DNA of 40,844 nucleotides from Chloroflexota bacterium (lineage in GTDB: Bacteria > Chloroflexota > Dehalococcoidia > JACPPT01). Shown piece by piece: positions 254 to 40,844 of this stretch (the stretch's first letter is position 1; every line of letters starts with the position of its first letter). Position numbers and translations under genes: made by a program. The notes under the pieces are model-generated. The model saw nothing but the letters and a program-made list of their open reading frames with translations, searched no databases and had not been told where the DNA came from. The DNA lies in assembly GCA_016190815.1 (NCBI GenBank), contig JACPPT010000017.1, positions 1-40,844 on the forward strand. The letters run 5' to 3'.

Positions 254-910
254 TTAGTTTGATTTACCAGGCCTTATAGAAATCTCCAGGCTCCTCACCT
301 CTTCGACTTCCTTCAACGCCGAGGCCATTCCCACAAGCACTTTGACGATGATTTTCTTCATAAAGGAGCCTACGGGGACGGAGCTACCGTTGACGGTTAG
401 AAAGACCTCGTCCTCTCCTTCCTTTCTCAAGAACCTCTTCACAACAAGGTCGATGATTTTGGGGGCGTCATCTCGCGAGCACTGCCATACGGGCACATCG
501 AGAGGCTCATCGGTGGCGATGGCAACAAGCTCCGCCGGCTGGCACATAAGCCCCTTGCCTTCGCCCTTGCTATACACCTCTATTTTAGGGGCTTTGGTCG
601 ACTTGAATCCTTCGCCGATCACTATGTCAAAGCTAGCGCCCAGGTCGGATGCCAGCTCCTCCAGTTCCTTGTCACGGTCAACCATGGCGAAGCGAGCCAT
701 TCTTTCAGGAGAGCTAACAACCACGGCATCGCTCCCTGCTTCCAGAAGACGCCAGCTATCCTTGCCGGGTATGTCTACCTGGAAGCCGTGGGGAGTGTGC
801 TTGATGGCAGCTACACGGTAGCCGCGGCTTTTCAATCCGCTTACCAGCTTGCACAATAGCTCCGTCTTCCCGGCACTAGACCAGCCGACTATTGATAGCA
901 AAGGAGTCAT
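254..910 (-). CDS. mobB: Molybdopterin-guanine dinucleotide biosynthesis protein B
   Basis: MTPLLSIVGWSSAGKTELLCKLVSGLKSRGYRVAAIKHTPHGF: MobB P-loop and AxKH motif. Confidence 0.88.
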   Translation of the reverse strand: MTPLLSIVGWSSAGKTELLCKLVSGLKSRGYRVAAIKHTPHGFQVDIPGKDSWRLLEAGSDAVVVSSPERMARFAMVDRDKELEELASDLGASFDIVIGEGFKSTKAPKIEVYSKGEGKGLMCQPAELVAIATDEPLDVPVWQCSRDDAPKIIDLVVKRFLRKEGEDEVFLTVNGSSVPVGSFMKKIIVKVLVGMASALKEVEEVRSLEISIRPGKSN

Positions 911-17047: not shown

Positions 17048-18283
17048 ATGTTTTCAAGTTTTGTAAACATTTGCGAGTTATTAGATAAGCCTTTTACGTT
17101 TGCCCTGGGTGGTCCACGTACCGGAAAAACTACATTGCTTGAGAAATACGTTCTGCCTCAGGTAGCTCAAAGTTTCCAGAACAAGCCTTACCTACTCTCG
17201 CTCATCAAGATTCGCACTTATTGGACAGAGACAGAAGAGATTAGAAGCCGTGTCTCTGCGGCACTCTTGCGAGGCATACTTTTGTATTCTGAGCATCTTC
17301 ACAAGGAGGCAAAAGAAGCGATTTCAAAGAACTTGAAGCAGAATTTATCAAACCTTGGCATTCCATCACAAGTCTCGCCTCAATTCATAGAGTTATATCT
17401 TGGTGAGTATTGGAATAACAAGGCAAAGCAGCAACAAATCGACCCACTTAGATGGTCTCTGGAAATGTTTCGCAATATTGCTTCGGACTTAAATGCAACT
17501 CCCTATTTATTGCTCGACGATGCCGATTTTCAGATCCGGACTGGTATACTAGGAGAGGTTCTTCATTTGTGCAAAACTTACCAAGTAGGCGTACTTGCTA
17601 GTGTAAGAAGTCTTTGTGATTCTAAATTTGACAGCGAAAATTTACTAGCAGAATATGCCCGTGTAGCGGATTTTCTATGTCTTGATTTCCTGCCGACAGA
17701 CCCTATGTTCAGGTCATTGTGTACGTCAATACTAAATGAGCAGGCACAGAGTGAAAAGGCTGAGCTTAAACGGACTGCAAATAGGGTTCAACTTGACGAT
17801 GAACTGTTTGATACAAGTGTAATGCTTTCCGGCGGACAGATAGGGAGATTCAGGGAAGTTATCCAATTCATGGCATCATTACAGGACGATTCTCGCAAAT
17901 GGTATTTCCCAAATCGTCTGCAGATAGTTGATTTCTGTGAGTCTAGAGTAGGGCAAATGCTCCAAAGAGAAGGTGACTCTTCTATCAAAGAGATGCTCAA
18001 GCAATGGGTGACCAATTTTGATCAGGCATTGGAAAGCAGTACAACAACATTAACTTGGCTCAAACTACCAGTAGATCAAATCGATGAAACGCAACTCGCC
18101 CGTGTGCTTTCGATAGTTCGGAGCGGGGTTCTTGTATGGGTACTTCAATGTGATAAAGAAGAACGCATCAATGTCGCAAAGCAGACCAGATTCATCCCAG
18201 CTCGTTTCAAGCTCTCGCCTCTTGCTGCAATAGCCGGAGGAATTTCTTTAAAGAAAGCATTAGGATCGAGCCTATGGAAATAG
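17048..18283 (+). CDS. P-loop ATPase (ORC/CDC6- or STAND-like), putative defence switch
   Basis: Walker A FALGGPRTGKTTLLEKY, Walker B PYLLLDDADFQ, following GVLASVRS; all-helical C-terminal half. Confidence 0.75.
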   Translation: MFSSFVNICELLDKPFTFALGGPRTGKTTLLEKYVLPQVAQSFQNKPYLLSLIKIRTYWTETEEIRSRVSAALLRGILLYSEHLHKEAKEAISKNLKQNLSNLGIPSQVSPQFIELYLGEYWNNKAKQQQIDPLRWSLEMFRNIASDLNATPYLLLDDADFQIRTGILGEVLHLCKTYQVGVLASVRSLCDSKFDSENLLAEYARVADFLCLDFLPTDPMFRSLCTSILNEQAQSEKAELKRTANRVQLDDELFDTSVMLSGGQIGRFREVIQFMASLQDDSRKWYFPNRLQIVDFCESRVGQMLQREGDSSIKEMLKQWVTNFDQALESSTTTLTWLKLPVDQIDETQLARVLSIVRSGVLVWVLQCDKEERINVAKQTRFIPARFKLSPLAAIAGGISLKKALGSSLWK

Positions 18284-19335
18284 AAAGACAGCTTACAGTA
18301 GAGGAACTAAGACGGCTGGATGAAAGAAGAGCAAGATCTACACAAGCTCCCGTGAAACACGCTTTTTGGGCAGGGCCCATGCCAGACCCTAATGTGAGGC
18401 CTCCTTATCATGAGACCATCAAGAGACTCTACGATGATTTTCTTGACCCGCACTTAAAATATGTGGATGCTTATCATCTTATTATGAGCGGTTCACCAGT
18501 TTTTAACGAGACCATACAGAATATCCTGATTAAAAACGCAGAATATATAGTGGCGGATTTGTCACTCCCACGGCACGATGTTATATTCGAGACAGGCTTT
18601 GGATTAGGTGCTGGTATTCAGACAATTCTTTACATTGATGTTAAAAGCTCAATCCGGCGCAGCTATCCAGGTGATGTGCTGAAATTCACCAAATTCGACG
18701 ATATTAAGAAACAACTTCCGCCGCAAATGCAGGATTGTTTATTTGTCCAGCCACCACGACGGGTTCCTGAGGGAGTAAAGGCTACAAAAAGAGGTGCACT
18801 TCAAGAGCTAGCAATGGGGTTCAATGAAAATGTCCATACGCCTGGACTTCAAATCACCAGACGCCGATGCTGTAAAATCCACTTTGAGGACAGAGAATGT
18901 GAATTTGTAAAAGAGTTGGTTAAACTTTCAAGGCCCAGAAGTGGTTACTGCCTTGTAGGTTTCCAAGATGACCACGAAGAACAGAAGGAGCGTGCCATAA
19001 ATATTTTCAAAAGAAGAGGTTTCAAATTCGTAGAGGAACTCGATGACGTTGTGGAAAACGAGGCCCCACTTTGTCGTACTTGCTTTTTTTTGAGAGTTGC
19101 CAACCGGATAATTGTAGATGGAACTTCTGCGGAAGTGTATAATGAAGAGTCTGCTGAATCCGCCTTTGTACTAGGAATGGCTGTGGCGATAAAAGCAAAA
19201 TATGAAAAATCTACAAAAATCAAGATGCTTTTTGATGAACGAGTAGGGCCGATAGGTATGTTCGCGGGCGGTAGGGCTGGCTGGCAATCAGAGAGATGGC
19301 GTGACCAAATTGACCGCGAGCTACAAGACTGGTAG
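18274..19335 (+). CDS. Protein with tandem TIR/nucleoside 2-deoxyribosyltransferase-like regions, putative effector
   Basis: First: ILIKNAEYIVADLSLPRHDVIFETGFGLGAGIQTILYID. Second: RVANRIIVDGTSAEVYNEESAESAFVLGMAVAIKAK. Overlaps the upstream ORF by 10 bp. Confidence 0.65.
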   Translation: MEIERQLTVEELRRLDERRARSTQAPVKHAFWAGPMPDPNVRPPYHETIKRLYDDFLDPHLKYVDAYHLIMSGSPVFNETIQNILIKNAEYIVADLSLPRHDVIFETGFGLGAGIQTILYIDVKSSIRRSYPGDVLKFTKFDDIKKQLPPQMQDCLFVQPPRRVPEGVKATKRGALQELAMGFNENVHTPGLQITRRRCCKIHFEDRECEFVKELVKLSRPRSGYCLVGFQDDHEEQKERAINIFKRRGFKFVEELDDVVENEAPLCRTCFFLRVANRIIVDGTSAEVYNEESAESAFVLGMAVAIKAKYEKSTKIKMLFDERVGPIGMFAGGRAGWQSERWRDQIDRELQDW

Positions 19336-19349
19336 AATGGGGAGGTCAT

Positions 19350-20417
19350 ATGTATAACAATCTGGCTAATGAAGCTAACTTCTGTACCACAACGGTGGTT
19401 GCACCATTGAAAAGAGCTCACGGTGGTGAAGTGCTTTTCATAGCTAGCTCAAGCTTTGAGAAACGCTGCACCCACGTAGCTCAAAATCTGACAAAGGATT
19501 ATGTTGCAGATGTAGCTCTGATATGTGATTTCCGAGGCGACTACGAACTTCAGCCCTCGCATCAGAGAAGCTTGGAGAACCTAAAAGCAAAGATGCAGTT
19601 TAATGTTAAGTCCATAAAGCTATGTAGTTTGAAGACTTACAATGCACAAGGGACTATACCAACACTAAGTAGCCAGCTTAGAGAGCTAGCAGATAATCAC
19701 AGGATAACACATATAGACTTCGATGTAACCACATTTACAAAGCAGTACATTCTGATAATGCTTAGGCTAATAGAAAAAGAATTCCCCAAGAGTTCGGTGC
19801 GAATTCTATATGCACCGGCAAGCCGGTATGGCATGCCCGGGACAAGAAAAGCATTAACTAAACATGTGCGAGATATAGTAGCAATTCCAGGGTTCGACAT
19901 GTTCAGAGACGGTAGCGATGCTCCTTTGAGTCTAGTTGTATTTCTTGGATTTGAAGAGGAACGTGTTCTGAATCTCCTAGACGCCCTAAGCCCTGTTGTA
20001 TGCATACCTGTCCTGCAACTAAGAAGGAACACACATTTTGGTTCTTTGGTGCCTTTCGAAAGCAACGGGAAGCTACTTAATCTAATCAGGACCAGGTACG
20101 GTGAAGGACCACGCTTTGTGGATGCCGAAAATCCAGTAAACAGCGCCAAATTTCTTCTCGAAACTTATCAGGAATACGTGAAGCGGAAGGGGACTGTTCT
20201 GCTAATAGCTCCTCACGGTTCCAAAATGCAAACTGTTGGCATATATCTGTTTAATCGAGCAGTGAACGACTCCAAGAATGTCGGGGTGGTTTATGCTCTT
20301 CCACAAATGTACCATAAGAGACAATACAGCGGGGAACCTATCGGGTACATTGCTGAGTTTACATGGCAATCTGAAAGTGCGAAAGTTGCTTCTACACCTA
20401 CTGTTGCCCTCGCGTAA
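19350..20417 (+). CDS. Uncharacterised Rossmann-like protein, possible CARF-like sensor
   Basis: VLFIASSSFEKRCTHVAQNL ... VALICDFRGDYE ... ITHIDFDVTTFTKQYILIML ... TVLLIAPHGSKMQTVGIYLFNRA; 14 nt after the preceding gene. Confidence 0.6.
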   Translation: MYNNLANEANFCTTTVVAPLKRAHGGEVLFIASSSFEKRCTHVAQNLTKDYVADVALICDFRGDYELQPSHQRSLENLKAKMQFNVKSIKLCSLKTYNAQGTIPTLSSQLRELADNHRITHIDFDVTTFTKQYILIMLRLIEKEFPKSSVRILYAPASRYGMPGTRKALTKHVRDIVAIPGFDMFRDGSDAPLSLVVFLGFEEERVLNLLDALSPVVCIPVLQLRRNTHFGSLVPFESNGKLLNLIRTRYGEGPRFVDAENPVNSAKFLLETYQEYVKRKGTVLLIAPHGSKMQTVGIYLFNRAVNDSKNVGVVYALPQMYHKRQYSGEPIGYIAEFTWQSESAKVASTPTVALA

Positions 20418-31013: not shown

Positions 31014-31469
31014 ATGAGAGAAAAGGTGGAGAAGGTCATCGACTCTATGAAAGGGAAGAAACCAACCATCCTCTCTGCCCTTTTGGCTATACAGGAGGAG
31101 ATAGGCTATATCCCCAAAGAGGCCATTCCAGAAGTAGCCGGGCTGGTTGGTGCCTCTGCCAACGAGGTATACGGCGTGATCACCTTCTACACCCACTTTC
31201 GCCTCGAGCCACCGGGAGAGCATTTTGTGGAGGTCTGCTGGGGCCCTTCCTGTCATGTTTGCGGCGGCAAGGAAGTGATGGATGCGGTTCTGGAGGAGCT
31301 AGGGCTATCTTCCGACGGTACCACAAAGGACAAGAAGCTGACTCTTAAACGCACCTCCTGCGCGGCAGCCTGCGCCCAAGGGCCCGTGATAAGCATTGAC
31401 CACAATTTGAGGGGACGGATGACGCCCGAAAAGGCCAGAGAGATGTTGGCCAGGGTAAAAAGTCGCTGA
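31014..31469 (+). CDS. NuoE-like [2Fe-2S] thioredoxin-fold subunit
   Basis: ALLAIQEEIGYIPKEAIPEVAGLVGASANEVYGVITFYTHFRLEPPGEHFVEVCWGPSCHVCGG ... TSCAAACAQGPVISID. Confidence 0.92.
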   Translation: MREKVEKVIDSMKGKKPTILSALLAIQEEIGYIPKEAIPEVAGLVGASANEVYGVITFYTHFRLEPPGEHFVEVCWGPSCHVCGGKEVMDAVLEELGLSSDGTTKDKKLTLKRTSCAAACAQGPVISIDHNLRGRMTPEKAREMLARVKSR

Positions 31470-31479
31470 AAGAGCAAAG

Positions 31480-33174
31480 ATGCCGCTTTCCTTTGACGAG
31501 CTCCAGCAAAAAGCCCAAAAGGAATGGGAAGCTTTCCAGCGGGCCGCTCCATCGACTCGAATTCTTGTCGGGACGGCCACCTGCGGAAGAGCCGCAGGCG
31601 CCCAGAATGTAGTAGAGGCTTTTCGCAAAGCCCTGGCTCAAGAGGGGATCCATGCGCTTATCCACGAGGTTGGCTGCCTGGGACCATGCTATGCGGAGCC
31701 AATAGTAGACATAATAAAGGCGGGGCATCCGCGCATAACCTATGGAAATATTACCCCTGAGATCGTACCTCAGCTTGTAAGGGACTACCTCATAAACGAC
31801 AATCCCCGGGCGGACATGGCCCTGGGCATCCATGGCGATGGCAAGATAGATGGCATTCCCAATTTATTTGAGATCCCTTTCTTCAAACTCCAGATGCGTA
31901 TAGCCCTGCGTAACAGCGGCATCATAGACCCCATAAACATATACCACTACATCGCCAATGGAGGGTATTCAGGCCTCAAAAAGGCCCTCGAGATGACGTC
32001 CGAGCAGGTGGTGGCTGAGGTCCAGAAGTCAGGTCTGAGAGGCAGGGGAGGGGCAGCCTTCCCCACAGGGCAGAAGTGGCAGTTCCTCCTGGGGGCACCT
32101 GGCCCCACGAAATACATACTGTGCAACTGCGAGGAGGGAGACCCCGGCGCCTTCAATGACAAAGCTATCCTTGAGAGCGATCCCCACACCCTGCTCGAGG
32201 GAATGGTTATAGCTGGCTACGCTACAAAAGCCACCAACGGTTACGTCTTCATACGCTACGAACACAGAGAAGTAATAAGGCGCACCCAGATGGCCATAAA
32301 CCAGATGAGGGAGTTTGGGCTTCTGGGCAGCAATATCCTGGGCACCTCCTTTGGCTTCGACATATCCATCGCCCTGACAGGGGAGTCGTATGTCTCGGGA
32401 GAGGAGACAGCCCTTATGGAGGCCATAGAGGGAAAGCGCGCCATGCCCAGGCCACGCCCGCCTTTCCCGGCACAGGTCGGGCTTTGGAGAAAACCCTCCA
32501 ACATAAACAACGTGAAGACCCTGTCCTATGTCCCGGAAATCCTGCGCAGGGGGGGAGAATGGTATGCAGGAATAGGCACCGAGAGGAGCAAGGGCACAGC
32601 AATTGTCTGTCTTTCAGGAAACATCAATAGACCAGGCCTGGCTGAGGTCCCTATGGGTACCTCCCTCAAGAGCGCGATTGAGGAAATAGGTGGAGGGGCG
32701 CCCAACGGTAAACAAATCAAGCTCCTCCAGACGGGGGGGCCTCTGGGTGGCATCATCTCGGCATCTCAAATAGAAGTACCTCTGGACTTCGACGCTATGG
32801 CAGGCAAGGGCGCCATTCTCGGCTCAGGTGGCATCATCGTTGCGGACGAACGCACCTGTGTGGTGGAACTCCTCAAAATTCTATGCACCTTCATATACGA
32901 GGAATCATGCGGCAAGTGCTTCCCATGCCGAATAGGGACAGCACATATCCTGGATCTAGTTAAGGATATAACAGAGGGCAGGGGAAGACCCGGAGACACC
33001 GAGCGACTGCTGGCCATGGGGGAGACGTTGACCTCCTCACTCTGCGGACACGGCCAACTGACCATCAGCCCAATACGCTCAGCTATAAACTACTTCGGTG
33101 ATGAGTTCAAGGCACACATCGAAGAAAAGCGATGCCCAGCAGGTGTGTGTAAAGCTCTTGGACGCCAGGGCTAG
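31480..33174 (+). CDS. NuoF-like FMN/NAD-binding subunit with N-terminal thioredoxin-like [2Fe-2S] domain
   Basis: KSGLRGRGGAAFPTGQKW ... CNCEEGDPGAFNDKAILESDPHTLLEGMVIAGYA ... ESCGKCFPCRIGTAHILDLV. Confidence 0.94.
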   Translation: MPLSFDELQQKAQKEWEAFQRAAPSTRILVGTATCGRAAGAQNVVEAFRKALAQEGIHALIHEVGCLGPCYAEPIVDIIKAGHPRITYGNITPEIVPQLVRDYLINDNPRADMALGIHGDGKIDGIPNLFEIPFFKLQMRIALRNSGIIDPINIYHYIANGGYSGLKKALEMTSEQVVAEVQKSGLRGRGGAAFPTGQKWQFLLGAPGPTKYILCNCEEGDPGAFNDKAILESDPHTLLEGMVIAGYATKATNGYVFIRYEHREVIRRTQMAINQMREFGLLGSNILGTSFGFDISIALTGESYVSGEETALMEAIEGKRAMPRPRPPFPAQVGLWRKPSNINNVKTLSYVPEILRRGGEWYAGIGTERSKGTAIVCLSGNINRPGLAEVPMGTSLKSAIEEIGGGAPNGKQIKLLQTGGPLGGIISASQIEVPLDFDAMAGKGAILGSGGIIVADERTCVVELLKILCTFIYEESCGKCFPCRIGTAHILDLVKDITEGRGRPGDTERLLAMGETLTSSLCGHGQLTISPIRSAINYFGDEFKAHIEEKRCPAGVCKALGRQG

Positions 33175-33216: not shown

Positions 33217-35976
33217 GTGGCAAAAGGCTCAGACATCATAACTCTTATCATAGATGGCAGAGAGGTAAAGGCCCGAAAGGGTGCAACCATTATAGAGGCG
33301 GCTCGAGAGGCAGGCATATATGTGCCTTTCCTGTGCTATCACCCCCAGCTTAAGCCCTATGGAGCGTGCAGAGCATGCGTGGTGGAAATCGAAAAGGTGC
33401 GGGGCTTTCCCACTTCTTGCACAAGCCCCGTTGCTGACGGGATGGTGGTTAAGACCCAGAGCACCGCCCTTGACAAGCTTCGAAGGGACATCATGAACCT
33501 GGTCCTGTCGGAGCACCCTCACGGGTGTCTTACCTGCCACAGGATCGAGCACTGTGGCCCCAGCGACATATGTCTGCGCCACGTGGCGGTAACAGATAGA
33601 TGCGTGGTCTGTCCCCAGAACGAGCGCTGTGAGCTACAGGATGTAGTCTACCGCATGGAATTTGCCACCGGCAAACCGTTTCCATTGAAGTACACCTACA
33701 GAAACATACCCCTAGATACCCGGAACCCCTTCATCGACCACGATATGAACCTTTGCATTGTTTGCGGTCGGTGCATCAGGATCTGCTCTGAGGTGGAGTG
33801 GGCTGATGTTCTGACCTTTGTCCAGAGGGGGAAGCACACCGTTGTGGGCACCTCTCTGGGGGGGCTGCTCTCCGACTCGGGATGCACCTTCTGTGGGGCA
33901 TGTGTTGATGCCTGCCCCGTGGGGGCAATAACAGAAAAAGACTACAAGTTCTCCGGTGCTCCAGAGCGCACCGTTACAACAACTTGCACCCACTGCAGCG
34001 TGGGCTGCCAGCTTAACCTACTGGTCAAGGATGAGAAGGTCATTAGAGTTATCCCAAGCCTGGAGGGACCAACAAGCAAAGGTGAGGCCTGCGCCAAGGG
34101 CAAGTTCGGACATAGGTTTATCAATTCTCCCCAACGTCTAACCACGCCCCTTGTGAGAAAGAACGGCACTTTTGTCAAGGCCTCATGGGAAGAGGCCCTG
34201 AAGATAGTTACTGATGGGCTTGCAAGGCACAGAGGAGCCCAGTTCGCAGCCATCGCCTCCTCCCGGATAACCAATGAAGAGGCATACCTATTGCAGAAGT
34301 TCACCAGGGGCATTATGGGCTCGCCAAATATCGATCACATTGATACCATTTGTCACCCCCAAAACGTGTCTGGCCTGGTGGAGACCTTCGGCTTGCCCGC
34401 CATGACCAACTCCTTAAGGGAGCTAAGGGATTCGTCCTGCATCCTCGTTTTTGGTAGCGATATAACCTTTGACCACCCCGTGGCTGGCCTGCAAATCAAA
34501 GAGGCTGTGAGAAGAGGTGCAAGCCTCATTGTCATAGACTCAGCCAGGACAGAGCTATCCCCCATGGCAACTTTGCACCTGAGGCCGCATCCCGGGACTG
34601 AAGTCAACCTCCTGGGAGCCTTTATACGCACCATAGTTGAAGAGGGGCTTTTCGACAAGCCCTTCATGGAAGGGCGCTGCGAGGGCTTCGACGCCTTGAA
34701 GGACTCGCTTTCGTCCTTCGACATCGGTGGTGGTGAAAGGACGTGCGGTGTTTCTAAGGAGCTTTTAGTCGAGGCTGCCAGGACGTACGCCAAAAGGAAG
34801 CCCGCTGCCATAGTGTACTCCGGCCATTTCCTGCAAAACGGCAACAGAAAAAGCGTCTCTTCGGCCCTGGCCAACCTGGCCATGCTCACGGGCAACATCG
34901 GGAAGTCATCATCAGGCCTGTATCCTATGGTGGGCGAGGCCAATAGCCAGGGTGTTATGGATATGGGCTGCACGCCCGACGCTTTGCCAGGTTATCAGGC
35001 CGCCGCTGATCCCCTCGTGAGAGAGAGATTTGATAAAGCATGGAAGACTGCGCTACCCGACGAGAGGGGTCTAACCACAGAGGGCATTATAGAGGCGATC
35101 CGCAAGAAGGAAGTAAGAGCTCTTTGTATTCTGGGGAATGGGCAACCTTCCTTCCTGCCAGAGCTTGAATCTGTACTTGGGAACCTGGAGTTTCTGGTGG
35201 TGATGGACAACCATATGAGCAGGGCGGCACATCTCGCTCAGGTGGTTTTGCCCCAGTGCACATTTGCCGAAATGGACGGGACCTTCACAAATTCAGAGAG
35301 GCGTGTTCAGAGGATTCGCAAAATCATTGAACCTGTAGGAGAGTCAAGACCATCCTGGTGGGTGATTTGCGACCTCGCAAGAAGACTGGGAGGCAATGGC
35401 TTTTCCTACGAGCTCCCCTCAGAAGTGATGGACGAGATAGCCAGAGTCGTCCCCATCTACGGTGGCATATCATATGAGCGTCTGGAGAATGGAGGGCTTC
35501 AGTGGCCCTGCCAGGACCCAGGCCACTCCGGAACAGCTATCCTCCACCAGGAGGGATTCCCAAGAGGGAAGGGTAAGCTTGCGCCTCTGCAATACGAGCC
35601 TCCTTCAAAAGAATACGAGGATAAGGAGCATCCATATCTCCTCTTTTCTACCACCATAAGGGAGATTCAGGGTAAAATAGAGTTGAGACATGAGAACATC
35701 CTGGAGCTTCACAGAGAAGATGCCATATCTGAAGGCATATCTGAGGGCGATTTGGTAGAGGTAAAACTGGAAAATATCGCAATAAAGGCGAGGGTAAAGC
35801 TCGGAGAGAACCCCCATAGAGGAGTCGTATTTCTGAGCTTCCCCCACACAGAAAGCACATCGAATCTTCTGAATAACCTTTTGTCCGAATTAAGCCCCCG
35901 TTCCTCCGACCTGAACGGGCGGCGAGTAAGGGTGGAAAAAATATCGGCATCCGGAACAAAACATGAGGTGAATTAA
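33217..35976 (+). CDS. FdhA-like molybdopterin oxidoreductase with N-terminal NuoG-like Fe-S domains
   Basis: 2Fe-2S plus His-Cys3 and 2x[4Fe-4S] N-terminal region, TTTCTHCSVGCQLNLLVKDEKV, HIDTICHPQNVSGLVETFG, LTGNIGKSSSGLYPMVGEANSQGVMDMG, FAEMDGTFTNSERRVQRIRK. Confidence 0.9.
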   Translation: MAKGSDIITLIIDGREVKARKGATIIEAAREAGIYVPFLCYHPQLKPYGACRACVVEIEKVRGFPTSCTSPVADGMVVKTQSTALDKLRRDIMNLVLSEHPHGCLTCHRIEHCGPSDICLRHVAVTDRCVVCPQNERCELQDVVYRMEFATGKPFPLKYTYRNIPLDTRNPFIDHDMNLCIVCGRCIRICSEVEWADVLTFVQRGKHTVVGTSLGGLLSDSGCTFCGACVDACPVGAITEKDYKFSGAPERTVTTTCTHCSVGCQLNLLVKDEKVIRVIPSLEGPTSKGEACAKGKFGHRFINSPQRLTTPLVRKNGTFVKASWEEALKIVTDGLARHRGAQFAAIASSRITNEEAYLLQKFTRGIMGSPNIDHIDTICHPQNVSGLVETFGLPAMTNSLRELRDSSCILVFGSDITFDHPVAGLQIKEAVRRGASLIVIDSARTELSPMATLHLRPHPGTEVNLLGAFIRTIVEEGLFDKPFMEGRCEGFDALKDSLSSFDIGGGERTCGVSKELLVEAARTYAKRKPAAIVYSGHFLQNGNRKSVSSALANLAMLTGNIGKSSSGLYPMVGEANSQGVMDMGCTPDALPGYQAAADPLVRERFDKAWKTALPDERGLTTEGIIEAIRKKEVRALCILGNGQPSFLPELESVLGNLEFLVVMDNHMSRAAHLAQVVLPQCTFAEMDGTFTNSERRVQRIRKIIEPVGESRPSWWVICDLARRLGGNGFSYELPSEVMDEIARVVPIYGGISYERLENGGLQWPCQDPGHSGTAILHQEGFPRGKGKLAPLQYEPPSKEYEDKEHPYLLFSTTIREIQGKIELRHENILELHREDAISEGISEGDLVEVKLENIAIKARVKLGENPHRGVVFLSFPHTESTSNLLNNLLSELSPRSSDLNGRRVRVEKISASGTKHEVN

Positions 35977-37443
35977 ATGGCGTTCAAGAGATTACCAGCG
36001 CTATGTACGATAAAGTGCCCCGCGGGAATAGACGTCCCGCGTTACATAGGCTTTATACAGCAAGGCAAGTACTCCGAGGCCGTGGCTGTGATTCGAGAGC
36101 GTATACCGCTTCCTTCGATATGCGGCTATGTATGCTACCGTACCTGTGAGCCCTGGTGTCGGCGAGGCAAGCTGGACGAGCCTGTGGCCATTAATGCCCT
36201 CAAGCGCTTTGCCACAGAGCACGGTAAAGAAACATGGCGCGAAAAGTCGAAGATAGTGCCGCCCACGGGAAAGAAAGTCGCTGTAATCGGGTCAGGGCCG
36301 GCCGGGCTTACGGCAGCCTACTATTTGAGGAAGCTCTGCGGCCACGCAGTTACTGTCTTCGAAGCCCAGGACAAGCCCGGCGGACAGCTTAGAATAGGCA
36401 TCCCATCTTACAGGCTGCCCCGCCGTGTCTTGGAGGGGGAGCTGGACGTAATAAAAGAGACGGGCGTGGAGATAGCGTGCGATAAGAGGATCGCATCCCT
36501 GGACGAGCTTCTTAGGGAAGGCTACGACGCCATTTTCATTGCAGCCGGAACCACAAAGCCTCAGAGGATGAGGATAGAAGGGGAGAACGACCCAGCAGTT
36601 ATAGAGTGCGTCAACTTCCTGAGAGATGTGAATTTCGGCAAGGCACAGAACATAGGCGAGAAGGTAGCAATCATAGGATGCGGAAACGTGGCAATGGACG
36701 GGAGTCGAACAGCCCTCAGGGTAGGTGCCCATGATGTAACCATCGTTTACAGGCGAACCCGAAACGAGATGCCCGCCCATGAATTCGAGTTGGAGGAGGC
36801 ATTGGCAGAAGGGGTAAAGACCATGTTCCTGACTCTGCCCACAAGGATCCAGAGGAAAGACGGCCACCTGCAGATGGAGTGTGTGAAGATGAGGCTGGGA
36901 GAGCCGGATTCCAGCGGCAGGCCCAGGCCTGAGCCTATCCCAGGAAGCGAGTTCGCCCTGGATGTGGATACAGTCCTTCTTGCCATAGGGCAGGTGCCTG
37001 ACGTACCGCCTCAATGGGGGCTGGAGCTTAACCCTAACGGCACCATAAAGGTGGACCCCAAGACCATGTTGGCCAGCAAAGAGCGCATATTCGCTGGTGG
37101 GGACATCGTTACAGGGCCCGTCAGCGTTATCCAGGCTATCGCAGGGGGGAGAGCTGCCGCAGTAGCTGTAGACAAGTACCTGGGCGGAGATGGCAACATT
37201 GATGAAGTCCTGGCGCCCCCGATGGAGGAAATAACGGATTTGCCCTACATCGACGGCGAGGGCCGGAGAGCTCATATGCCGGAGAGGTCCGTTTCAGAGA
37301 GGCTCAAGGGATTCGATATCGTTGAACTGGGGTTGACGAAGGACATGGCTATTGCTGAGGCCAATCGCTGCCTCCGCTGCGACCTCTGGAGGCTCAAAGT
37401 CCCCTTGGTCTGGAAGGAAAAGAAGAAAGGCGAAGAGGAGTAG
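35977..37443 (+). CDS. GltD-like NAD(P)H/FAD Fe-S oxidoreductase subunit
   Basis: CTIKCPAGIDVPRYIGFIQQGKYSEAVAVIRERIPLPSICGYVCYRTCEPWCRRG ... KVAVIGSGPAGLTAAYYLR ... VAIIGCGNVAMDGSRTALRVGA ... IFAGGDIVTGPVSVIQAIAGGRAAA. Confidence 0.93.
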   Translation: MAFKRLPALCTIKCPAGIDVPRYIGFIQQGKYSEAVAVIRERIPLPSICGYVCYRTCEPWCRRGKLDEPVAINALKRFATEHGKETWREKSKIVPPTGKKVAVIGSGPAGLTAAYYLRKLCGHAVTVFEAQDKPGGQLRIGIPSYRLPRRVLEGELDVIKETGVEIACDKRIASLDELLREGYDAIFIAAGTTKPQRMRIEGENDPAVIECVNFLRDVNFGKAQNIGEKVAIIGCGNVAMDGSRTALRVGAHDVTIVYRRTRNEMPAHEFELEEALAEGVKTMFLTLPTRIQRKDGHLQMECVKMRLGEPDSSGRPRPEPIPGSEFALDVDTVLLAIGQVPDVPPQWGLELNPNGTIKVDPKTMLASKERIFAGGDIVTGPVSVIQAIAGGRAAAVAVDKYLGGDGNIDEVLAPPMEEITDLPYIDGEGRRAHMPERSVSERLKGFDIVELGLTKDMAIAEANRCLRCDLWRLKVPLVWKEKKKGEEE

Positions 37444-38900: not shown

Positions 38901-40844
38901 ATGAACAGACATAGTTCAGCCCCAGCCCCCATAAGACATCAGTACCTGAGAATAAAACAACACTACCCCGATGCCATCCTCTTATTCCGCCTGGGCGACT
39001 TCTACGAGACCTTCGAAGAGGATGCTAGAATTGCATCCCGGGAGTTGGGCATAACCCTCACCTCCAGAGAGATGGGCAAAGGACAGCATTTCCCCATGGC
39101 CGGCATCCCTCATCACGCCCTGGATAACTATCTGGGCAAGCTCATAGGCCGGGGATACAAGGTCGCCATATGTGAGCAGATAAGCGACCCAACAGCTTCA
39201 AGGGGGCTGGTGGACAGGGATGTAGTGCGGGTGGTCACCCCCGGCACTGTGGTGGAGCCTCAGCTTCTGGAGCAGAAGGCAAATAACTACCTTGCCGCCC
39301 TCGTCCTGGATGAAAAAGGGGCAGGGCTGGCATATGTTGACATAACAACCAGCGAGTTCTCCACCACTCAACTGGCCCAGGGCCAGGTCCAGGCGGAGAT
39401 GGAGCGCCTGCGCCCCTCGGAGGTTCTAGTGCCCAAAGACGTAAGGTTTCCAGAAACCTGGCTCACGGGTACTCGTACTTTCTTGGACAAAAGCTGGTTC
39501 GAACCGGAGTCCGCCCGCCAGCTCCTCCTGGAACATTTCGGGGCTAGTACTCTTGAGGGCTTCGGGTGTGAGGGACTCCCCCTGGCCACAGCAGCCGCGG
39601 GAGCCATAGTTCACTACCTCCAGGAGACTCAAAAGGGTGCTCTGGGCCAGCTCACCCGCCTTTCGACTTACTCAACGCAGGCATTCATGACCCTGGACCC
39701 CCAGACCCGCCGGAACCTGGAGCTTTTTCAAAGCAGCAGCCTTGTAAGTCCCGCCAACTCCCTTCTTTCCGTGCTGGACATCACTAGGACTCCCATGGGG
39801 GGCAGGCTTTTAAGAAAATGGCTGGGACAACCCCTTCTGGACTTGCAAGAACTTGGCAAAAGGCAAGAGGCTGTAGAGTGGTTCTATAAGAGAGCTATCC
39901 CCCGGACAGGTGTCCTCTCGGCCCTATCTCGCATTCCCGACCTGGAACGCCTCGTCAATCGAATAAAAGGCCGAATCGCAATCCACAAGGAAGTGCTGGC
40001 CCTCCGCCGCGGGTTGGAGATGCTCCCTGAACTTGAAGGGATGCTGAAAGAAAAAGGTGAGGCCGACAGCCCCGACATATCATGGCTCACCAGAGAGGTA
40101 AAACCCTGTAATGACATCGTGGCTCTCATCTCCAAGGCAATAGCAGACGAAGCACCTGCAAGCATCGGGGAGGGCGCGGTCATAAAAGCAGGATTCTCGG
40201 AGGAGCTAGACAGCCTCAAAGCCGCATCCAGGAACGCCGCCGAATACATAGCCGGACTGGAGCGAAAGGAGCGGGAAAGCACAGGCATCAAGTCCCTCAA
40301 GGTGGGCTACAACAAGGTCTTCGGCTACTACATCGAGGTTAGCAAGCCCAACCTTAGCCAGGTCCCCAAGGAATACATACGAAAGCAAACTCTGGTGAAC
40401 GGGGAACGTTTCTTCACCCCGGAGCTTAAAGAATACGAATCCCTCATCCTCAACGCCCGGGAGAGGATTGAGGAGCTGGAGACCGCCCTTTTCCGTCAAG
40501 TTTGCTTCCAGATAGAGACATCTGCTGAGCGCATCCTCACCACAGCCTCAGCACTGGCGCACATAGATGCATTCTCTGCCCTGGCAGAGGTTGCGTCCCG
40601 CCATAGCTATGTTCGCCCCACGCTGACACGGGACGACACCATTTCCATTATCGGGGGACGGCACCCGGTTGTCGAAAAAGCTCTACCTCAGGGGGAGTTC
40701 GCCCCCAACGACACACACCTTTCTAACAAGGACACGCAGATTGTGATCCTCACAGGCCCCAACATGTCCGGCAAGTCCACCTACCTGAGGCAGGTGGCCC
40801 TCATCGTGCTCATGGCCCAGATAGGGAGCTTTGTCCCAGCCGAA
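38901..40844 (+). CDS. mutS: DNA mismatch repair protein MutS, truncated by window edge
   Basis: IRHQYLRIKQHYPDAILLFRLGDFYETFEEDARIASRELGITLTSR ... AGIPHHALDNYL ... TGPNMSGKSTYLRQVALIVLMAQIGSFVPAE. Confidence 0.97.
   Translation, partial: MNRHSSAPAPIRHQYLRIKQHYPDAILLFRLGDFYETFEEDARIASRELGITLTSREMGKGQHFPMAGIPHHALDNYLGKLIGRGYKVAICEQISDPTASRGLVDRDVVRVVTPGTVVEPQLLEQKANNYLAALVLDEKGAGLAYVDITTSEFSTTQLAQGQVQAEMERLRPSEVLVPKDVRFPETWLTGTRTFLDKSWFEPESARQLLLEHFGASTLEGFGCEGLPLATAAAGAIVHYLQETQKGALGQLTRLSTYSTQAFMTLDPQTRRNLELFQSSSLVSPANSLLSVLDITRTPMGGRLLRKWLGQPLLDLQELGKRQEAVEWFYKRAIPRTGVLSALSRIPDLERLVNRIKGRIAIHKEVLALRRGLEMLPELEGMLKEKGEADSPDISWLTREVKPCNDIVALISKAIADEAPASIGEGAVIKAGFSEELDSLKAASRNAAEYIAGLERKERESTGIKSLKVGYNKVFGYYIEVSKPNLSQVPKEYIRKQTLVNGERFFTPELKEYESLILNARERIEELETALFRQVCFQIETSAERILTTASALAHIDAFSALAEVASRHSYVRPTLTRDDTISIIGGRHPVVEKALPQGEFAPNDTHLSNKDTQIVILTGPNMSGKSTYLRQVALIVLMAQIGSFVPAE

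What the first reader, a model, noticed from the sequence alone, without database searches (positions are those of the whole stretch)
34351..34970. FdhA-like subunit retains Cys-His but appears to lack the formate dehydrogenase catalytic Arg and Gln
Seen: molybdenum ligand region HIDTICHPQNVSGL (Cys at 34351-34353, a Cys rather than Sec form) and YPMVGEANSQGVMDMGCTPDALPGYQ. Established knowledge: E. coli FDH-H uses Sec140, His141, Arg333 and Gln335, the last two lying in the conserved PLRGQNNVQGACDMG. By-eye alignment places Val (codon 34930-34932) at the Arg and Glu at the Gln. Inference: the enzyme may not oxidise formate and could have another substrate.
Basis: partly seen in the sequence, partly recalled or inferred. 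Interest (0 to 1): 0.7.

Follow-up and report, generated by a model that had tools for sequence, protein, structure and literature searches.

The report
Formate-dehydrogenase relic acting as NADH-dehydrogenase subunit
The gene looks like a formate-burning enzyme, but its active site has decayed while every iron-sulfur wire is kept, so it most likely now only passes electrons from NADH onward (probably into the respiratory complex I of an oxygen-using relative of Dehalococcoides) rather than acting on formate or a new substrate.

Summary
The 919-aa product of 33217-35976 keeps the Mo-ligand Cys and the His (34351-34356), but has Val for the catalytic Arg (34930-34932) and Glu for the catalytic Gln (34936-34938). 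'Not a formate dehydrogenase' is well supported; 'another substrate' is not. With active-site columns masked, the protein falls in a 32-member Dehalococcoidia clade (support 100/99) in which the Mo site is eroded differently in nearly every member. Cys-His is absent in all 31 others, and Lys44 is lost in some. A 13-residue conserved loop of the cofactor-binding domain is deleted in the window's own 7-member subclade. All 23 iron-sulfur Cys and the N5-type His are kept in all 30 members checked. The partner NuoF also lacks the two-cluster ferredoxin tail of bifurcating relatives. The genome has two 11-subunit complex I sets without NuoEFG, and the window's NuoF is the only one found. Clade genomes carry heme-copper oxidase (26/26) and almost never FdhD (1/26). 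Best reading: an FDH-derived, catalytically silent NuoG-type subunit, probably the NADH-input arm of complex I, with a GltD-type NADPH flavoprotein. The main rival is a Stn-like soluble transhydrogenase. Docking to complex I is inferred, not shown.

The parts
31014..31469 (+). NuoE-type [2Fe-2S] subunit
   Evidence: Pfam PF01257 E 2.4e-42; closest NCBIfam FDH gamma / NuoE, below cut-off
31480..33174 (+). NuoF-type FMN/NADH subunit with thioredoxin-like N-terminus; ends 90 aa after the start of ESCGKCFPCR, without the C-terminal 2x[4Fe-4S] ferredoxin tail
   Evidence: PF01512, PF10589; tail comparison; only NuoF found in the genome
33217..35976 (+). FDH-derived NuoG-type subunit (919 aa): NuoG-like Fe-S N-terminus plus degenerate FdhA Mo domain
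33334..34092 (+). Fe-S ligand region (residues 40-292: 23 Cys plus His100), kept in all 30 checked members of the clade
34351..34356 (+). Mo-ligand Cys and adjacent His (FDH-H U140/H141), retained together only here within the 32-member clade
34819..34851 (+). SGHFLQNGNRK in place of the FDH stretch AMGITQHSHGT
34930..34932 (+). Val codon at FDH-H Arg333
34936..34938 (+). Glu codon at FDH-H Gln335
35644..35676 (+). site of the 13-residue deletion of the FDH HxHTGTMTR loop (C-terminal cofactor-binding domain)
   Evidence: deleted in all 7 members of the window subclade
35977..37443 (+). GltD/NfnB-like Fe-S flavoprotein, predicted NAD(P)H site; starts directly after the stop of the FDH-like gene
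   Evidence: PF14691, PF07992; NCBIfam GltD group

Best explanation
The protein descends from an NAD-dependent, NuoEF-linked formate dehydrogenase of Dehalococcoidia and has lost Mo catalysis. It now works as a NuoG-type electron wire. NADH gives electrons to FMN in NuoF, and they pass through the [2Fe-2S] and [4Fe-4S] clusters of NuoE, NuoF and the N-terminal half of this protein. The most likely acceptor is NuoI of an 11-subunit complex I encoded elsewhere in the genome, so that NuoEF plus this protein form its NADH-input (N) module. The GltD-like flavoprotein encoded next to it probably adds an NADPH entry or exit. The C-terminal Mo domain is a structural relic, as in ordinary NuoG. Shown: residues, operon, clade, retained Fe-S ligands, missing NuoF ferredoxin tail, gene content. 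Inferred: no cofactor or no turnover at the Mo site, and docking to complex I.
For: Mo site eroded differently across the clade, from KCHVE (window) and KCPRD to QFPLE, WFLRE, QMRRE, KSPRE and K-RYG, against K(C/U)HR(Q/H) in canonical FDHs. Clade 100/99 with these columns masked, window subclade 100/98. 29 of 108 FDH-invariant Mo-domain columns changed, with the HxHTGTMTR loop deleted. Yet 23/23 Fe-S Cys plus His100 are kept in 7/7 and 23/23 relatives. NuoF lacks the ferredoxin tail in every clade member where it could be read, while FDH operons of the same type mostly have it or a GltD fusion. The genome has two 11-subunit complex I sets without NuoEFG and one NuoF, in this operon. A single NuoF is also seen in 21 of 26 clade genomes. 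COX1 in 26/26 clade genomes against 2/11 canonical-FDH genomes; FdhD in 1/26 against 9/11. In a related lineage (L047, L048, L170) a degenerate FDH-like gene lies directly after NuoI.
Against: The operon is not linked to nuoA-D/H-N in this genome, and the genome is only about 71% complete. Cys and His are retained here, so a bound Mo cofactor is not excluded. NCBIfam NuoG scores below its cut-off (353 against 470). The neighbouring GltD (or FNR in other members) suggests an NADP(H) role that complex I does not need. The genomes compared were picked by me from search hits and are related to each other.
Confidence: 0.6

Rival explanations
1. Soluble Stn/Nfn-like transhydrogenase: NuoE+NuoF handle NAD(H), GltD handles NADP(H), and the FDH-like chain is a dead scaffold wire between them, as in StnABC of Sporomusa ovata.
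For: Domain content equals StnABC, and StnC also carries a catalytically inactive FdhF domain (PMC10482914). GltD is encoded directly downstream. PntB was not found in the window genome or in the 6 other genomes of its subclade.
Against: The NuoF lacks the C-terminal ferredoxin clusters, so bifurcation with ferredoxin is unlikely (StnB has three [4Fe-4S] clusters). GltD is absent or replaced by FNR in most of the wider clade. StnC is a much more distant sequence match than FdsA (259 against 556 bits). The genomes would then have no other NuoF-type NADH input for complex I.
Confidence: 0.22
2. Molybdoenzyme with a changed substrate: Mo-bisMGD is bound through the retained Cys, and V/E reshape the pocket.
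For: Cys, His, Lys44 and the proximal [4Fe-4S] ligands are kept; 79 of 108 FDH-invariant Mo-domain columns are kept; MobB is encoded in the window.
Against: All other clade members have lost the Cys-His pair, and several Lys44; the HxHTGTMTR loop is gone; no shared replacement motif marks a new function at the R/Q positions; the genome has other Mo enzymes that explain MobB.
Confidence: 0.1
3. Still a formate dehydrogenase with altered kinetics.
For: Cys-His retained; TIGR01591 is the best NCBIfam match, though below cut-off.
Against: Both Arg333 and Gln335 replaced; no FdhD found in the genome; COX1-positive lineage.
Confidence: 0.03
4. Ordinary complex I NuoG inherited vertically from other Chloroflexota.
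For: Same fold family; canonical NuoG of other classes is 33-36% identical.
Against: NuoGs from nuoABCDEFGHIJKLMN operons form a separate group, and the window clade sits on the FDH side (support 100). Holding it with Dehalococcoidia FDHs gives a better tree (lnL +19, p-AU 0.71).
Confidence: 0.05

Closest known systems
NAD-dependent formate dehydrogenase FdsABG / FdhA-NuoEF (R. capsulatus FdsA, PDB 6tg9)
   Same: Same domain order, partners NuoE/NuoF, Fe-S ligands, Mo-ligand Cys-His; best sequence match (about 556-566 bits) and fold match
   Different: Lacks Arg333 and Gln335 equivalents and the HxHTGTMTR loop; no FdhD found in the genome; clade members lose the Mo ligand
Complex I N-module NuoEFG (NuoG)
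   Same: Fe-S wire with a molybdoenzyme-derived C-terminal domain lacking the catalytic site; partners NuoE and a tail-less NuoF
   Different: Separate operon, different lineage (from FDH), below the NuoG model cut-off, GltD neighbour
Stn transhydrogenase StnABC (Sporomusa ovata, PDB 8oh5; PMC10482914)
   Same: NuoE-, NuoF-, NuoG- and GltD-type parts with an inactive FdhF domain
   Different: GltD is a separate gene, NuoF has no ferredoxin tail, FDH part not closely related
Dehalococcoides FDH-like CISM subunit DET0187 (PMC5736913)
   Same: An FDH-like subunit without FDH activity in the same class
   Different: That one is an FdnG-type membrane enzyme linked to Hup hydrogenase and reductive dehalogenase; no NuoEF
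nuoEFG in a separate operon beside an 11-subunit Nuo (SAG An-B22, PMC5736913)
   Same: Same genome layout reported for a deep-sea Chloroflexi cell
   Different: The FDH origin and Mo-site decay of NuoG are not discussed in the sections read

Membership tests
NAD-dependent Mo/W formate dehydrogenase (FdhA/FdsA, TIGR01591) | Cys/Sec Mo ligand followed by His | tested here: met
   TGT CAC at 34351-34356
NAD-dependent Mo/W formate dehydrogenase (FdhA/FdsA, TIGR01591) | Catalytic Arg (R333) and Gln/His (Q335) | tested here: not met
   Val and Glu
NAD-dependent Mo/W formate dehydrogenase (FdhA/FdsA, TIGR01591) | Curated model cut-off | tested here: not met
   565.6 bits against 666.25
NAD-dependent Mo/W formate dehydrogenase (FdhA/FdsA, TIGR01591) | HxHTGTMTR loop of the cofactor-binding domain | tested here: not met
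   13-residue deletion
NAD-dependent Mo/W formate dehydrogenase (FdhA/FdsA, TIGR01591) | Maturation protein FdhD in the genome | tested here: inconclusive
   Not found, but the genome is about 71% complete; two clade genomes with an extra canonical FDH also lack it
NAD-dependent Mo/W formate dehydrogenase (FdhA/FdsA, TIGR01591) | Formate oxidation | not testable with these tools
   needs assay
Complex I NuoG (TIGR01973) | NuoG-type Fe-S ligands ([2Fe-2S], His/Cys N5-type, further [4Fe-4S]) | tested here: met
Complex I NuoG (TIGR01973) | Curated model cut-off | tested here: not met
   353.1 bits against 470.05
Complex I NuoG (TIGR01973) | Encoded with NuoE and NuoF | tested here: met
   31014-33174
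Complex I NuoG (TIGR01973) | Encoded in the nuoA-N operon | tested here: not met
   complex I sets lie on contigs C19 and C81
Complex I NuoG (TIGR01973) | Common descent with canonical NuoG to the exclusion of FDH | tested here: not met
   weak opposing signal (support 72) noted
Complex I NuoG (TIGR01973) | Physical docking to NuoI/NuoCD | not testable with these tools
   needs complex prediction or purification
Stn transhydrogenase | NuoE-, NuoF-, NuoG- and GltD-type parts with inactive FdhF domain | tested here: met
Stn transhydrogenase | GltD fused to the NuoG part in one StnC chain | tested here: not met
   separate genes 33217-35976 and 35977-37443
Stn transhydrogenase | StnB/HydB-type NuoF with extra [4Fe-4S] clusters | tested here: not met
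   no CxxCxxCxxxC in the NuoF tail
Stn transhydrogenase | Electron-bifurcating NADH/NADPH/ferredoxin activity | not testable with these tools
   needs assay

The most novel reading that the evidence does not exclude
Dehalococcoidia that took up oxygen respiration independently rebuilt the NADH-input arm of complex I from their own bifurcating, NuoEF-linked formate dehydrogenase: they dropped the NuoF ferredoxin tail and let the Mo site decay. This would repeat the ancient FDH-to-NuoG transition, with the window protein as an intermediate that still holds the Mo-ligand Cys-His.
Probability: 0.42. Interest if true: 0.75.

Novelty: new variant of a known kind. Interest (0 to 1): 0.55.

Why it matters
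Complex I is thought to have been assembled from modules, with NuoG derived from a formate-dehydrogenase-like molybdoenzyme; intermediates are rarely seen. This clade offers a graded series from working FDH to a subunit with its Mo site gone, linked to heme-copper oxidase, and makes the module-recruitment idea testable in living lineages. Practically, such genes would be misannotated as formate dehydrogenase in aerobic Dehalococcoidia genomes and lead to false claims of formate metabolism.

Tried and rejected
One Pfam call failed because of a wrong frame; its main proteins were rerun. The genome-contig scan gave only 4 loci, so the genome search was used instead. An order-level search held only this genome, so no close relative could show whether V-G-E is fixed within its order. 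I first thought the second complex I set (C81) lacked NuoI; a finer ORF scan found it at L174 5789-6265, so both sets have 11 subunits. A NuoG-rooted quick tree placed the degenerate clade near the root of the FDH side, which could be long-branch attraction; the AU comparison found a better tree with the clade held with Dehalococcoidia FDHs, so I keep FDH descent but not its exact branching point. Absence of PntB was too patchy in the wider clade to decide between rivals. No model coordinates were available for measuring distances around the Mo site.

Full report
OBSERVATION. Five independent phmmer alignments to solved FDHs place V opposite the catalytic Arg and E opposite Gln/His. A multiple alignment with E. 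coli FDH-H from MG1655, whose U140, H141, R333 and Q335 were checked, gives K44-C-H-V-E.

ANATOMY. The protein has a NuoG-type N-terminus ([2Fe-2S], N5-type His/Cys motif and further 4Fe-4S clusters) followed by an FdhA-type Mo domain. It scores below the curated cut-offs of both TIGR01591 FDH-alpha (565.6 against 666) and TIGR01973 NuoG (353 against 470). Upstream are NuoE (31014-31469) and NuoF (31480-33174). Directly downstream is a GltD/NfnB-like flavoprotein (35977-37443), and at 38901 mutS. The AF2 model (mean pLDDT 82.6, pTM 0.84) matches NAD-FDHs best and complex I NuoG next.

RELATIVES. Searches of 400 Chloroflexota genomes, 100 relatives and 393 genomes of the class gave 122 distinct homologues. 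Canonical ones carry K44, C/U140, H141, R333, Q/H335. A second set is eroded: window KCHVE, L158 KCPRD, L159 QCPLE, L006 QFPLE, L099 WFLRE, L039 QMRRE, L137 KSPRE, and a large group such as K-RYG or K-RFG. With active-site columns masked, 32 of these form one clade (100/99), with the window in a 7-row subclade (100/98). The window protein is the only one of the 32 to keep Cys-His. Rooting matters: a quick tree with canonical NuoG placed the clade near the base of the FDH side, but holding it with Dehalococcoidia FDHs gave a better likelihood (+19, p-AU 0.71). Descent from FDH rather than from canonical NuoG is therefore favoured, though not proven.

WHAT IS LOST AND WHAT IS KEPT. Of 108 Mo-domain columns invariant in canonical FDHs, the window protein changes 29. 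These include the stretch AMGITQHSHGT, now SGHFLQNGNRK, and a 13-residue deletion that removes the HxHTGTMTR loop in all seven members of the subclade; that this loop contacts the pterin cofactor is my knowledge of the fold, not tested. In contrast, all 23 Fe-S Cys and His100 are kept in 7 of 7 subclade members and 23 of 23 sister members. Constraint is thus held on the electron wire and released on the Mo site. The partner NuoF lost something too: where readable, canonical FDH operons of this type mostly have a C-terminal tail with two CxxCxxCxxxC motifs or a fused GltD, whereas every readable NuoF of the degenerate clade, including the window's, ends without them. In HydB/StnB-type enzymes such extra clusters belong to the bifurcating module (PMC10482914, plus general knowledge).

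GENOME CONTEXT. The window genome has two 11-subunit complex I sets (contigs C19 and C81), neither with NuoE, F or G, and a single NuoF, the one in this operon. Of 26 genomes with a member of the clade (24 in the tree, 2 obvious near relatives), 21 also have a single NuoF. COX1 is present in 26 of 26 against 2 of 11 canonical-FDH genomes, and FdhD in 1 of 26 against 9 of 11. Fisher p values are 4e-7 and 4e-6, but genomes were hand-picked from hits and are related, so these are descriptive. Two clade genomes (G122, G362) carry a separate canonical FDH as well (L050, L051). In L047, L048 and L170, a related but separate lineage, a degenerate FDH-like gene follows NuoI directly. In other Chloroflexota, canonical NuoG lies inside nuoABCDEFGHIJKLMN operons. 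The third partner varies: GltD in most of the window subclade, plant-type FNR or nothing in the rest.

INTERPRETATION. The best explanation is an FDH-derived NuoG-type electron relay, most likely the NADH-input module of complex I, with an NADPH flavoprotein attached. That it is not a working FDH I hold at about 0.9; that it serves complex I at about 0.6. The main rival is a Stn-like soluble transhydrogenase: StnC unites GltD, a NuoG domain and a catalytically inactive FdhF domain (PMC10482914). The missing NuoF ferredoxin tail argues against bifurcation, but not against simple NADPH/NAD exchange, and both functions could coexist. A changed substrate at Mo is unlikely given the decay in sister proteins, but the retained Cys-His means bound Mo is not excluded.

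NOVELTY. nuoEFG in a separate operon beside an 11-subunit Nuo has been noted for a deep-sea Chloroflexi cell (PMC5736913), as has an FDH-like subunit without FDH activity in Dehalococcoides (same paper). My searches of open-access papers did not turn up a report of an FDH-derived, Mo-decayed NuoG in this class. I rate it a new variant of a known kind.

Noticed in passing
window 17048-20417: Three adjacent ORFs; the third (19350-20417) matches PADLOC CARF6 models (E 4e-29), the other two match no Pfam or PADLOC family: possibly a cyclic-oligonucleotide-responsive defence cassette.
   Followed up: partly
window 254-910 (-): MobB (Pfam E 1.8e-38): the genome makes molybdopterin guanine dinucleotide and has at least three other Mo oxidoreductases; the two typed are DMSO-reductase-like.
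   Followed up: partly
L109, L110, L111, L093, L113, L100, L156, L167: In many canonical Dehalococcoidia FDH operons NuoF has a C-terminal tail of about 555 aa that looks like a fused GltD; in L025 a GltD-like domain sits inside the NuoG/FDH chain.
   Followed up: partly
L047, L048, L170: NuoI (in L047 also NuoB) lies directly upstream of a degenerate FDH-like gene (RVAPE/RVAPD), with no NuoF nearby.
   Followed up: partly
L131, L161, L133, L136: Other FDH-like proteins with Ser (KSHLQ) or Asp (RDHRE, RDRRA) at the Mo-ligand position, next to GltD or NuoF.
   Followed up: no
L112, L116: FDH-like proteins with His141 replaced by Asp but Arg and Gln kept (KCDRQ).
   Followed up: no
G000 contigs C19 and C81 (L173, L174): Two separate 11-subunit complex I gene sets in one genome, a pattern shared by many relatives (6 antiporter-like subunits).
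   Followed up: partly
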